The position numbers and the translations under genes are program-made. The notes under the pieces were generated by a model. The model had not been told where the DNA came from. It did not search any database and worked only from the letters and a program-made list of their open reading frames with translations. From Candidatus Woesearchaeota archaeon (lineage in GTDB: Archaea > Nanobdellota > Nanobdellia > Woesearchaeales > UBA9642): a stretch of DNA of 64,000 bases. The first letter of the stretch is position 1. Each line of letters starts with the position of its first letter. Positions 23,978 through 28,397 of this stretch are shown here, piece after piece. The DNA lies in assembly GCA_003599145.1 (NCBI GenBank), contig QZIT01000005.1, forward strand, positions 191,961-255,960, in the 5' to 3' direction.

Positions 23978-24475
23978 TTATGGCATTCTTCTTAACTGCT
24001 TTAAAAGGTAATTTTCTTGGTTATACTCAAGAACTGTTTTTTTCTCTTCCTGCTGAATTATTTTAGATTTTTCCTTTTGAATGATAATCTGATTAGTGAA
24101 TTCTTCAAGCCTTAAAAAAATAGTGTTTAAATCATCTTCTGACAGTTTCAGAGGATTCCATTGAAAATTCAAGCCGTCATTTTCCCTTCTAGGGATAATA
24201 TGCATGGAAAACCTTGAAGAAGTTTGTCCCGCGGGAATGCCGTTTTCTATGATGATATTAGTTCCCTGGCAATTGAGATGGTCGAATAAAACCGTTGAAA
24301 GTTTATTTGCTGTTATTGCCATAGTTTCTATTACTGCATTGGGCACTTGTTCAAGAATAGTGAATGGCTGTGCTGAAAAAAGCTGAATATGCCCAGGTGT
24401 TGCAGGCTTTAAAGGCAATACCGCTATCTGGTTTTCATCCTTGAATAACAATCCTGGCTCTGTTTCAGGGTTCAT
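23978..24475 (-). CDS. HIT-like family protein (degenerate)
   Basis: 'NIIIENGIPAGQTSSRFSMHIIPRREND'; overlaps upstream HIT gene by 4 nt. Confidence 0.75.
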   Translation of the reverse strand: MNPETEPGLLFKDENQIAVLPLKPATPGHIQLFSAQPFTILEQVPNAVIETMAITANKLSTVLFDHLNCQGTNIIIENGIPAGQTSSRFSMHIIPRRENDGLNFQWNPLKLSEDDLNTIFLRLEEFTNQIIIQKEKSKIIQQEEKKTVLEYNQENYLLKQLRRMP

Positions 24476-25257
24476 GCAAACAGGTCTCCGATTTTATCCA
24501 AATCAAGGGCTATTGTTTTTTCTTCTTTTTCTATTTCTTCTTCTTCATCATCCATTTCTTTTTCCTTTTTATCGAACTTGTCAAAATCATCTTCTATTTT
24601 TTGTTTTCTTTTTTTCTTTTTTTCGGATTTTTTTTCTTTTTTTAACTGCACCACTTGTTTTGTCTCTTCTTTTTTCTCTTCTTTTTCTTCTTGTATCTCT
24701 GCATCAAGCTCTTTTTTATCCTCTATGAATTGTTGTGCATCTTTTTTCTCATCTAATACTTGTTGTTTTTCTCCGCCGACAAAAGGCAGGAGGTGATTTT
24801 TTAAAGTCATCAGGTCTTTTTCTGAAATAGGCTTTGCAGGAATAGTTAAAATGCCATCATCCTGCTTGCGCTGGAAAACATGAATCATGAAATGAGGAGC
24901 TCTTTGTCCTGCAATGGCGCCATTGGCAACAAAAATATTGGTTCCTTTTGCATTAAATGCCTTTAAAATCGCATGAGAAAGCTCCTTTGCAACAACAAAC
25001 ATTCTTGCGATAACCTCTTCAGGCATTTGCGGAAGTATCTGATAATGGTCTTTGGGCAATAATAAAACATGGCCTTCGCTTGCAGGGTTGATATCAAGAA
25101 CAGCAACGCAATGTTCATCCTGATAGAGCTTTTTTGAGGGTATTTCTCCTGCAATAATCTTGCAGAAAATGCAGTTTTGCTTTTGCAGTTCCAGCAACTG
25201 CTCAGGCGACATCTTCTTCAATTCCTCCTCAGTTGGTTGCATAGTCTTTTTAGGCAT
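24472..25257 (-). CDS. HIT family protein with highly charged C-terminal extension
   Basis: 'CIFCKIIAGEIPSKKLYQDEHCVAVLDINPASEGHVLLLPKDHY', 'AGQRAPHFMIHVFQR', then K/E-rich tail. Confidence 0.88.
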   Translation of the reverse strand: MPKKTMQPTEEELKKMSPEQLLELQKQNCIFCKIIAGEIPSKKLYQDEHCVAVLDINPASEGHVLLLPKDHYQILPQMPEEVIARMFVVAKELSHAILKAFNAKGTNIFVANGAIAGQRAPHFMIHVFQRKQDDGILTIPAKPISEKDLMTLKNHLLPFVGGEKQQVLDEKKDAQQFIEDKKELDAEIQEEKEEKKEETKQVVQLKKEKKSEKKKKRKQKIEDDFDKFDKKEKEMDDEEEEIEKEEKTIALDLDKIGDLFA

Positions 25258-25352: not shown

Positions 25353-25832
25353 GTGATTATGGCTAAAAAAAAGAGTTCTGTTCCTAAGAAAAAACCAGTA
25401 AAAACTAAAAAAGCTGTGAAAAAAACTGTAAAAAAAGCTGTTTCTAAACCTGTTCAAGCAGCAACACAGAGCTACATGGAAAAGAATGAAATGAGCACTG
25501 AAAAGCCAAAATCCATGTCTGAATTTGATAAAGAATTAGAAGAAACCGCAAAATTGCTGACTAAACCTGAAATAACAGCACAGCAGCCTGCTCAGACAAC
25601 ACCGACAAATACGCAGACAACGGAAATAGCGCCTCATGACAAAACAGCCATTCATTCAACAGTATTTGGGATTTTAGGCATTATCCTGTTTCCCTTTTCA
25701 ATCGTGGGAATCATTTTAGGAGCAAAAGCAGTAAAACAAGGCTCTCATACAGGAAAAGGAGCAATACTGCTCAGCATTTTAACGCTGATTTTGAACCTGA
25801 TATTAATCTACATTTTTTTAACAGCAGTATAA
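25353..25832 (+). CDS. DUF4190-like membrane protein with Lys-rich N-terminus
   Basis: KKKSSVPKKKPVKTKKAVKKTVKK... then 'ILGIILFPFSIVGIILGAKAVKQGSHTGKGAILLSILTLILNLI'. Confidence 0.65.
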   Translation: MIMAKKKSSVPKKKPVKTKKAVKKTVKKAVSKPVQAATQSYMEKNEMSTEKPKSMSEFDKELEETAKLLTKPEITAQQPAQTTPTNTQTTEIAPHDKTAIHSTVFGILGIILFPFSIVGIILGAKAVKQGSHTGKGAILLSILTLILNLILIYIFLTAV

Positions 25833-26164
25833 TTTTTTATTTCCTTTTTTACTAATTCTAGAAGAAATGCAAATGTGACATATCCTGATTCTTTGTTTAA
25901 ATGCCCTCCGTTTTCGATGACTAAGAGCGGAGTGTTCAGATTTTTTGCAAGGTCTTTTCCTTTTTCTAAGGACACATAAGGGTCATTGTCTGCATTCATG
26001 ACATAAAATTTTTTGCAGTTTTTTTTAATAAGAGAAAAATCAACTTTTTTTGTCGTAAATGTTTTGTTCAATGCATCATTTTGGTTTTTATCGAGATCTA
26101 TACTCTGCGATAACTCTGGTCCAGGTATTTTTATTGAAAGGAACTTCAGGATGCAAAGAAACAT
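25808..26164 (-). pseudogene. C-terminal remnant of an RBBP9/YdeN-like alpha/beta hydrolase
   Basis: 'DFSLIKKNCKKFYVMNADNDPYVSLEKGKDLAKNLNTPLLVIENGGHLNKESGY' resembles only the C-terminal half (Asp and His region); no GxSxG upstream. Confidence 0.6.
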
Positions 26165-26786
26165 CTAATCCTATTAATGGAATGCCTCTTTCAATGCATG
26201 CTCTTTCAAGTGCAGAACCGGTTTCATCATACACATTTGCATTGAAATAGACTGTTTTTATTGCCGTAGGTTGAATCTGTACATGAGAGCCCAATTGAGC
26301 TACTTCATGAACATTATATACACCAGTTCGGTGGCCAATGGAATTGACTGGAAAAAAATCAATCTGTTCAGCATGCAATTCAATAACTGCCTGATCAAGT
26401 TTTTCTCTTGCATAACCGCAAATGCAAGCACCATGTGATGGGCTTTTTGCCATAAAAACTGTAGGAATTGCAGGTTGATCAGGGATGTCAGATTTATCGC
26501 ATACTTTCGGTTGTAATCCATTTTCAAGAATTCCTTGGATGTTGCTTAAACGGGTAACATGATAGATGTTTTCTCCGATATTTGCAAGAATGTCATAGAT
26601 TCTACCCTCAACAAAAGCAAGTCCAGAATGTTCATGCAAAGCATCAAGCACTTCAGACTGGGTAATCCCTAAACGCATGCAATCATTTAAAGCAAACATC
26701 GTTCTGCTCAATCCTTCTTCATATTTTGGCAAAATAACAGACCATACGTTATCAAGAACCTGTTTTGATCTTTCAGTTACTACCAC
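26088..26786 (-). CDS. hypothetical protein with possible ADP-ribosyltransferase-like segment
   Basis: 'YHVTRLSNIQGILENGLQPKV...VFMAKSPSHGACICGYA...AVIELHAEQIDFFP', reminiscent of the ART/DarT/KptA fold opening. Confidence 0.45.
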   Translation of the reverse strand: MVVTERSKQVLDNVWSVILPKYEEGLSRTMFALNDCMRLGITQSEVLDALHEHSGLAFVEGRIYDILANIGENIYHVTRLSNIQGILENGLQPKVCDKSDIPDQPAIPTVFMAKSPSHGACICGYAREKLDQAVIELHAEQIDFFPVNSIGHRTGVYNVHEVAQLGSHVQIQPTAIKTVYFNANVYDETGSALERACIERGIPLIGLDVSLHPEVPFNKNTWTRVIAEYRSR

Positions 26787-26821: not shown

Positions 26822-27658
26822 TTACAGAAACACCAAATACCAGTTTCCAATAAGCAGCGTTAAGATAAATGCTATTAAAAAGCTTGGAACAAAGGGCATG
26901 CCGTATTTTACTTTTACGGTTTTTACGTTTAATTTTATTAGCTGCGCAAGTTGTTGCTTGGTAATGCCTAAATCCTTAGGCCCGGTAATTCTTTTTCCCC
27001 TTACCATAACGTCTTCAACAATCCAGTCTCCTTCTGTAATTTTCTTGACAGGAACATTTTGAATCATGCAGGATTCTTCAACAACTTTAATGAATATCCA
27101 AAGATAAAACATTAAAAAGATAGCTGCCAAAAGGCCTAATAAAGGAAGCCTGACATAAGCAGGAAGCGAAAAAACAACAGCAAGACCTAGCACTAAAAAT
27201 CCAAGCATGACAAATCTCCATCGCACAATATGCTTTTGAATCACAAATGCTTTTAATCTAACCATGAACTCTTTTCTATGCTGAAAAGCAACAACAACAC
27301 TCCATACTATACCGTAAACAGCCCCTGCTAAAAGCGTGTTAACCAAGAAGGTTATTAAAAACAAATTAGGGCTTAATCCTATTAAACTGCCTATACCCAT
27401 TAAAATTTTCGTATCTCCACCGCCCCATTGGCCTAATTTATACATGCCCCAGCCTAAAACAAACGCTAAGATAAACCCTAAAACACTGTACAGCAGATAA
27501 AACCATTCTTTATAGACAATGGTGAGCACAATATTAACTGCAAAACCCAGGTAGATTAAGCCATGGCTTATCCAATCAGGCACTTCTCTTGTTCTTAAAT
27601 CAGTATAAGAACCCACAATAAGGCCTAAAAGCGCAAAAAGATGAATAAAAGTAACCAT
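26822..27658 (-). CDS. A24 family prepilin/preflagellin peptidase
   Basis: 'SYTDLRTREVPDWIS' and 'GQWGGGDTKILMGIGSL' (GxGD aspartyl protease); start likely M at 27658. Confidence 0.9.
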   Translation of the reverse strand: MVTFIHLFALLGLIVGSYTDLRTREVPDWISHGLIYLGFAVNIVLTIVYKEWFYLLYSVLGFILAFVLGWGMYKLGQWGGGDTKILMGIGSLIGLSPNLFLITFLVNTLLAGAVYGIVWSVVVAFQHRKEFMVRLKAFVIQKHIVRWRFVMLGFLVLGLAVVFSLPAYVRLPLLGLLAAIFLMFYLWIFIKVVEESCMIQNVPVKKITEGDWIVEDVMVRGKRITGPKDLGITKQQLAQLIKLNVKTVKVKYGMPFVPSFLIAFILTLLIGNWYLVFL

Positions 27659-27710
27659 GTTAAAGCTGTTAAAGGGAAAGTTTATAAATTTTTTCAACAT
27701 TCAACCATTT

Positions 27711-28397
27711 ATGGGGATTATTGATTTTAAGGAAATCTTAAGCAAAAAGCTGTTAAACAAGGAAATGCCCAATCATTTAGCTCTTGCAACCATGAACTTT
27801 TCTGGTTACGATGAAAAAAAGGCCATTGAAAAGCACATTGCTTTATTGAATGAACTTATAGAATTCCAGATTAAAACAGCGATTCCTATTTTTACTATTC
27901 ACTTAAGACAGACTCCTGAAGAATACAAGAAATATCTTGCCAGCTATATCAAAAGCCTTGAGCATGATGAAACAATAAGCAAAAATCAAGTGAGGATTTT
28001 TATTATAGGAAAATGGTATGACTTAGAGCAGGATGCTGTTGAAGCCATCAAAAGCATCATGGAAGCAACCAAAGACTATGATAAGCATTTTTTGAACTTA
28101 TGCGTTAATTATGACGGACAAGAAGAAATTTTGGGCTCATTGAAATTAATGGCCAGAAAAATACAAATGGAAAAAATGAACTTTGAAGAGCTTTCAAAAG
28201 AAGTCATCAAAGACAACCTTTACACGTCTTATTTCATACCTCCTGATTTGATGATAGAAACAGGCTATCAATTTTCAGGCTTGTTATTATGGGACAGCCA
28301 GGGAGCAGTACTGCACTTTACCAGAAAGCACTGGCTGGAATTTGACAAGAAAGATTTAGAGCAGGCTTTGGAAAGATTTGTAAAATCAAAAAGTTAA
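27711..28397 (+). CDS. divergent undecaprenyl-diphosphate synthase (cis-prenyltransferase) family protein lacking catalytic motifs
   Basis: 'MPNHLALATMNFSGY' at the HVAIIMDGNGR position, 'NLCVNYDGQEEILGS', 'PPDLMIETGYQFSGLLLWDSQGAVLHFTRKHWLEFDKKDLEQAL'. Confidence 0.75.
   Translation: MGIIDFKEILSKKLLNKEMPNHLALATMNFSGYDEKKAIEKHIALLNELIEFQIKTAIPIFTIHLRQTPEEYKKYLASYIKSLEHDETISKNQVRIFIIGKWYDLEQDAVEAIKSIMEATKDYDKHFLNLCVNYDGQEEILGSLKLMARKIQMEKMNFEELSKEVIKDNLYTSYFIPPDLMIETGYQFSGLLLWDSQGAVLHFTRKHWLEFDKKDLEQALERFVKSKS

What the first reader, a model, noticed from the sequence alone, without database searches (positions are those of the whole stretch)
27711..28397. Cis-prenyltransferase (UppS) homolog that has lost its catalytic motif
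Seen: the protein aligns by eye with UppS throughout, including 'NLCVNYDGQEEI' and 'LLLWDSQGAVLHFTRKHWLEFDKKDLEQAL'. The canonical MDGNGRW is 'ATMNFSGYD' and the RTGGExRxSN motif is 'ETGYQFSG'. Established: eukaryotic NgBR/Nus1 are inactive cis-PT subunits. Inference: an archaeal non-catalytic partner or regulator of a heteromeric dolichol/undecaprenol synthase, relevant in a genome with sequon-rich surface proteins.
Basis: partly seen in the sequence, partly recalled or inferred. Interest (0 to 1): 0.6.

Follow-up and report, generated by a model that had tools for sequence, protein, structure and literature searches.

The report
Dead prenyltransferase conserved across Woesearchaeota
An order of tiny archaea (Woesearchaeales) carries a relative of the enzyme that builds sugar-carrying lipids; it has lost its active site and also the tail that dead partner subunits such as human NgBR lend to their enzyme, yet it is strongly conserved and nearly always sits back-to-back with a pilin-processing protease, so it probably has a non-enzymatic job.

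Summary
Window 27711-28397 (+), "B", is an intact cis-prenyltransferase homolog (Pfam 95 bits; AlphaFold pLDDT 91.8, UppS/DHDDS folds as best matches) without a catalytic site. The genome holds one other cis-PT, "A", fully intact, about 31 kb away. B belongs to a family found only in Woesearchaeales in the genomes searched: one clade (100/100), in 74 of 182 genomes, under purifying selection. Of 11 active-site residues kept by 62/62 intact relatives, 90 distinct B proteins keep 0-3.

The NgBR-like reading is only partly supported. B keeps, more strongly than active enzymes do, the segments that form the dimer face. But no B has the aligned glycine of the C-terminal RxG that NgBR donates to its partner's active site; A keeps its own RxG in genomes with B; and eleven genomes, including two congeneric pairs, have B without A. 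B and a type IV prepilin (A24) peptidase are divergent neighbours in 73 of 75 informative named loci. B therefore looks like a dimerising pseudoenzyme, perhaps tied to surface-protein maturation, rather than an obligate activating subunit. Function and partner are unproven.

The parts
27711..28397 (+). B: catalytically dead cis-prenyltransferase homolog, 228 aa from the ATG at 27711 (ORF opens at ATG 27657)
   Evidence: PF01255 95 bits; AlphaFold pLDDT 91.8, pTM 0.87; Foldseek UppS/DHDDS; intact ORF; start at 27711 fits the 45-70 base gap usual in relatives
27846..27878 (+). start of B where DGNxR, H, S-x-x-N and R (diphosphate and Mg site) of active enzymes have no counterpart; the lost stretch spans roughly 27770-27980
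   Evidence: column counts
28005..28247 (+). conserved half of B: GKWYDL, TKDYDxxFLNxCxNYDGQEEI, helix a5, KDNLYTSYFxPPD; corresponds to the dimer face of cis-PTs
   Evidence: invariant columns of alignments A1/A2; more conserved in B than in active relatives; interface elements from PMC7573591
28251..28300 (+). degenerate RTGGExRxSN (here ETGYQFSG) followed by the B-specific invariant LLLWDS
28356..28397 (+). C-terminus ERFVKSKS: ends after the last helix, no RxG tail
27659..27710 (.). short divergent intergenic region with palindromic TATA box TTTATAAA at 27681-27688, about 26 bases from both start codons (27658 - and 27711 +)
   Evidence: palindromic TATA boxes are also common in other divergent pairs of this genome, so it is not a special feature
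26822..27658 (-). A24 (type IV prepilin / preflagellin) peptidase, GxGD motif GGGDTK, divergent partner gene of B (ORF extends to 27700)
   Evidence: PF01478 55.6 bits; divergent neighbour of B in 73 of 75 informative named loci
24472..25257 (-). HIT-domain protein, part of the ancestral neighbourhood of the peptidase/B locus
   Evidence: PF01230; recurrent beside the peptidase

Best explanation
B is a true pseudoenzyme: an archaeal-type cis-prenyltransferase that lost its active site once, in or before the ancestor of Woesearchaeales, and was then kept at a fixed locus, back-to-back with a prepilin peptidase, by selection for a non-catalytic role. Shown by sequence: dead active site, intact fold (predicted), conservation shifted to the dimer face, one origin, purifying selection, fixed divergent neighbour, presence in genomes without any active cis-PT. 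Inferred: B dimerises through the canonical cis-PT face (with itself where A is absent; with itself or with A elsewhere) and acts as a binding or regulatory protein in surface-protein maturation, expressed alongside the prepilin peptidase. It cannot work as NgBR does, because it has no RxG tail to lend, and A keeps its own tail.
For: Active site: 62/62 intact relatives keep 11/11 residues, 90 B keep 0-3. Dimer-face segments carry more information in B than in active enzymes (strand C 3.20 vs 2.79 bits, a4 2.62 vs 2.17, strand D 3.45 vs 2.75, a5 3.03 vs 2.64, linker 2.80 vs 2.14), while active-site segments carry less (1.87 vs 3.27; 1.84 vs 3.35). Confident cis-PT fold. One clade, support 100/100. 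dN/dS 0.03-0.29 between close pairs, similar to the neighbouring peptidase. Divergent peptidase next to B in 73/75 named loci. B without A in 11 of 74 genomes, replicated in genera g14 (G016, G149) and g147 (G178, G179), confirmed with PF01255 at E<=1.
Against: A and B co-occur more than expected (63 both, 66 A only, 11 B only, 41 neither; odds ratio 3.6, Fisher p 7e-4; not corrected for phylogeny), which fits a link between B and A. The peptidase is in 176 of 182 genomes with or without B, and in some B-less genomes its other neighbours remain, so the peptidase does not need B and the neighbourhood may partly be inherited gene order. MAG incompleteness explains some B-only cases (G057 lacks A, its congener G144 has it). 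No binding or expression data.
Confidence: 0.45

Rival explanations
1. Modulatory heterodimer. B pairs with A through the canonical face, but because B has no RxG tail the A site in an A-B dimer is left incomplete; B thus lowers or retunes A's output (activity or chain length), acting as a brake rather than as an activator.
For: Conserved dimer face in B; A-B co-occurrence; the trans role of the RxG tail in cis-PT dimers (PMC7573591; C-terminus of one MM_0014 subunit covers the other's cavity, PMC8131916); A keeps its own RxG, so A-A dimers must also matter.
Against: B persists under selection in lineages without A; A and B are not neighbours; no sign tested of A being altered in B-bearing genomes.
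Confidence: 0.3
2. NgBR/Nus1-like obligate activating subunit.
For: Dead homolog plus one intact paralog in the same genome; heteromeric cis-PTs are known in an archaeon, MM_0618/MM_1083 of Methanosarcina mazei (cited in PMC8131916); yeast Nus1 has Asn instead of the Arg of RxG and still works (PMC7573591).
Against: No aligned RxG Gly in 90 of 90 B; A has its own RxG in genomes with B, which an obligate A-B dimer would not need; roughly half of A-bearing genomes do without B, and 11 B-bearing genomes lack A.
Confidence: 0.12
3. B has a changed or residual enzymatic activity at the old site.
For: Strong conservation of a new signature (KWY, SYFxPPD, LLLWDS).
Against: The former diphosphate- and Mg-binding positions are not only replaced but variable between B proteins; the new invariant residues lie mostly in dimer-face segments.
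Confidence: 0.08
4. Decaying pseudogene or chance resemblance.
For: Loss of catalytic residues.
Against: Open frame in nearly all relatives, dN/dS well below 1, 14 invariant columns in 20 diverse members, fold confidence 91.8.
Confidence: 0.01

Closest known systems
UppS / cis-prenyltransferases, Pfam PF01255 (catalytic homodimers; UPPS, MM_0014, DHDDS)
   Same: Same fold and full-length homology; dimer-face segments shared; B is nearest to the archaeal type with PPPDLIIRTG and FLLWDS (for example G241, G015 A)
   Different: Active-site residues lost (0-3 of 11 kept), C-terminal RxG lost, below the NCBIfam cut-off for uppS (94 against 109.55 bits)
NgBR (NUS1) / yeast Nus1, the non-catalytic subunit of eukaryotic dolichol synthase
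   Same: Non-catalytic cis-PT fold with conserved dimer face, in a genome with an intact paralog
   Different: No RxG/NxG tail; partner A keeps its own RxG; not close in sequence to NUS1 (E 0.01-0.3); occurs without A in some genomes; no N-terminal transmembrane segment evident
Archaeal heteromeric cis-PT MM_0618/MM_1083 of Methanosarcina mazei (cited in PMC8131916)
   Same: Two cis-PT paralogs in one archaeon, a precedent for a heteromer
   Different: Orthology not tested here (the sequences could not be obtained). No B outside Woesearchaeales was seen among the Nanobdellota genomes searched; Methanosarcina was not searched with the B profile

Membership tests
cis-prenyltransferase superfamily (PF01255) | profile score above the curated cut-off | tested here: met
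   94.9 bits against 27
cis-prenyltransferase superfamily (PF01255) | cis-PT fold | tested here: met
   model pLDDT 91.8; the listed PDB matches are cis-PTs, apart from rank 1, an integrative model titled ISPT-SYA that was not looked into
catalytic UppS | DGNxR, NxxR, RTGGExRxS and Mg/diphosphate residues | tested here: not met
   window keeps 1 of 11, family 0-3 of 11
catalytic UppS | NCBIfam equivalog cut-off TIGR00055 | tested here: not met
   94 bits against 109.55
NgBR/Nus1 non-catalytic subunit | cis-PT fold without catalytic residues, dimer face retained | tested here: met
NgBR/Nus1 non-catalytic subunit | C-terminal RxG (NxG in yeast) donated to the partner's active site | tested here: not met
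   0 of 90 B have the aligned Gly; all C-termini end at or soon after the last helix
NgBR/Nus1 non-catalytic subunit | catalytic partner lacks its own RxG | tested here: not met
   A ends RRFGK or a close variant in genomes with and without B
NgBR/Nus1 non-catalytic subunit | sequence kinship with NUS1 | tested here: not met
   profile A2 against PDB: NUS1 E 0.0096-0.27, DHDDS 6.5e-37
NgBR/Nus1 non-catalytic subunit | always found with a catalytic partner | tested here: not met
   11 of 74 B genomes lack A; replicated in two genera
NgBR/Nus1 non-catalytic subunit | physical complex with, and activation of, the catalytic subunit | not testable with these tools
   no complex prediction or assay available
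archaeal heteromeric cis-PT (MM_0618/MM_1083) | orthology to one of the two subunits | not tested

The most novel reading that the evidence does not exclude
B is the first non-catalytic cis-PT whose role does not depend on an active cis-PT: a self-dimerising pseudoenzyme that senses or holds a polyprenyl carrier and couples it to pilin or other surface-protein maturation, expressed from a divergent promoter shared with the prepilin peptidase.
Probability: 0.2. Interest if true: 0.75.

Novelty: new variant of a known kind. Interest (0 to 1): 0.5.

Why it matters
Dead cis-PT subunits were known mainly from eukaryotes, where they are essential and disease-linked, with heteromeric cis-PTs also reported in Methanosarcina. 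Here a whole order of DPANN archaea has independently made and kept a dead cis-PT that lacks the one element by which NgBR is known to work. That makes a clean natural test of what a dead cis-PT subunit can do without its tail, and it marks an uncharacterised, widely conserved gene of an uncultured symbiont lineage whose lipid-carrier and surface-protein biology is largely unknown.

Tried and rejected
Pseudogene or sequencing artefact: rejected by dN/dS and conservation. B as a duplicate of the A type: B forms its own clade, and its PPPDLII / FLLWDS features resemble the other archaeal cis-PT type (G241, G015), not the WQ-type A. A special bidirectional promoter: a palindromic TATA is enriched in the B/peptidase gap (33/61 against 2.8 expected), but other divergent pairs have it too (16/59 in the same loci, 6 of 11 divergent pairs in the window including this one), so it is not taken as evidence. 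B needed by the peptidase: rejected, since the peptidase is in 176/182 genomes. B tied to N-glycosylation: not discriminating, because STT3 is near-universal in the order with or without B. Literature searches found no report on these genes in the held library.

Full report
What is there. The window is G000:C1:191961-255960 of a 1.31 Mb, 97% complete genome. The named contigs carrying the closest relatives of the gene are nearly all Woesearchaeota/Nanoarchaeota (DPANN) assemblies, so the organism is taken to be a member of Woesearchaeales. It is called B here. Pfam gives only PF01255 at 94.9 bits, starting at profile position 52, because the N-terminal catalytic part is too altered to align; NCBIfam's uppS model is reached at 94 bits, below its cut-off of 109.55.

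A second, intact enzyme. PF01255 has exactly two matches in the genome: B, and an intact UppS at C1:188226-188891, just outside the window's left edge, with 258 bits. This protein, A, has ILDGNRRF, RTGGEQRISN and the C-terminal RRFGH. The genome also has one STT3/AglB-type oligosaccharyltransferase.

B is a family. In 60 relatives many genomes carried the same pattern of one strong and one weak cis-PT. The weak copies form one family with its own signature: GKWYDLP, TKDYDxFFLNFCxNYDGQEEIVDA, KENLYSSYFxPPDLIIKTG, LLLWDS. In a tree of 108 sequences all 46 B rows form one side of a branch with support 100/100. A B profile scores B and intact enzymes well apart, apart from one intact enzyme at 212 bits (G015): in 182 order genomes of at least 90% completeness, 63 have both, 66 only the intact enzyme, 11 only B, and about 41 neither (the counts rest on bit-score separation, with two weak cases left out of the intact-only class). 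In the wider phylum search the non-order genomes had a single match each; the 16 of those read here are intact enzymes, in which DGN and an RxG-type tail were seen, including the one exceptional 204-bit match, G241. B was therefore seen only within the order, in the genomes searched.

The active site is gone, the dimer face is kept. Across 62 intact relatives all 11 chosen active-site residues are invariant; 90 distinct B proteins keep 0 to 3 (the window protein 1), and none has the aligned Gly of the C-terminal RxG (a loose text pattern found an unaligned R-x-G near the end of two B proteins). Information content falls in the catalytic loop (1.87 against 3.27 bits) and in GGExRxSN (1.84 against 3.35), but rises in strand C, helix 4, strand D, helix 5 and the linker before the PDLII strand. 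In the human complex the dimer interface is made by helices 4-6 and the neighbouring linkers (PMC7573591), so the part of B under strongest constraint is the part that dimerises in its relatives. That mapping is by alignment and published element names; interface contacts were not computed. AlphaFold gives a confident monomer (pLDDT 91.8, pTM 0.87), and Foldseek returns UppS and DHDDS structures.

Selection. Between close pairs dN/dS of B is 0.03-0.29, in the range of the neighbouring peptidase. B is therefore not decaying.

Neighbourhood. No other neighbour is nearly as constant. The peptidase occurs in 176 of 182 order genomes. In several B-less genomes the HIT genes on one side, or L7Ae and S28e on the other, are still near it, with other genes in B's place (G004, G018, G110). 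The locus thus looks ancestral, with B inherited vertically and lost in places. Whether the pair reflects joint function or merely old gene order is open. The palindromic TATA box in the 52-base gap of the window is not special, since similar boxes occur in other divergent pairs.

Why not simply an archaeal NgBR. NgBR crosses the dimer with its C-terminal RxG and completes the active site of DHDDS (PMC7573591). B has no such tail. A has one in genomes with and without B. If A worked only as an A-B dimer, A's tail would point into B's dead site and need not be kept; its conservation implies that A-A dimers are functional. B also occurs without A in 11 genomes; two such cases are replicated within a genus (G016/G149, G178/G179), and a PF01255 search at E<=1 found no A in them. 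One B-only case, G057, is probably an assembly gap, since its congener G144 has A. The B profile finds NUS1 chains only at E 0.01-0.3, but catalytic DHDDS at 7e-37, so B and NgBR lost catalysis independently.

What it most likely does. I favour a dimerising pseudoenzyme with a role that does not strictly need A, perhaps in surface-protein maturation beside the prepilin peptidase (confidence 0.45, mostly for the negative and structural parts). The main rival is a modulatory A-B dimer, supported by the positive but phylogenetically uncorrected co-occurrence (odds ratio 3.6, p 7e-4). An NgBR-like activator is less likely but not excluded, since yeast Nus1 also departs from RxG and Methanosarcina mazei is reported to have a heteromeric cis-PT (PMC8131916). 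Steps shown: dead site, fold, family, selection, locus, distribution. Steps inferred: dimerisation, partner, pathway, any ligand.

Noticed in passing
order-wide survey: Many Woesearchaeales genomes have an STT3/AglB-type oligosaccharyltransferase but no detectable cis-PT (16 of the 20 listed genomes without a cis-PT match). Where their lipid carrier comes from is unclear.
   Followed up: no
window 27681-27688 and relatives: Palindromic TATA box (TTTATAAA) midway between divergent start codons; common in other divergent gene pairs of this genome too (6 of 11 in the window, this one included), suggesting shared, perhaps leaderless, divergent promoters.
   Followed up: partly
L206 (G241) and L070 (G015 A): Intact cis-PTs with B-like features (YDGREEI, PAPDLIIRTG, FLLWDS) that may be closest to the active ancestor of B.
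   Followed up: partly
window 26088-26786 (-): 232-aa ORF without a Pfam match, next to the peptidase.
   Followed up: no
window 25808-26164 (-): 118-aa ORF matching only the C-terminal third of a serine hydrolase family (PF06821); possibly truncated.
   Followed up: no
L152 and L153: B genes on contigs labelled Aminicenantes and Methanosarcinales; probably mis-binned or mislabelled Woesearchaeota contigs.
   Followed up: no
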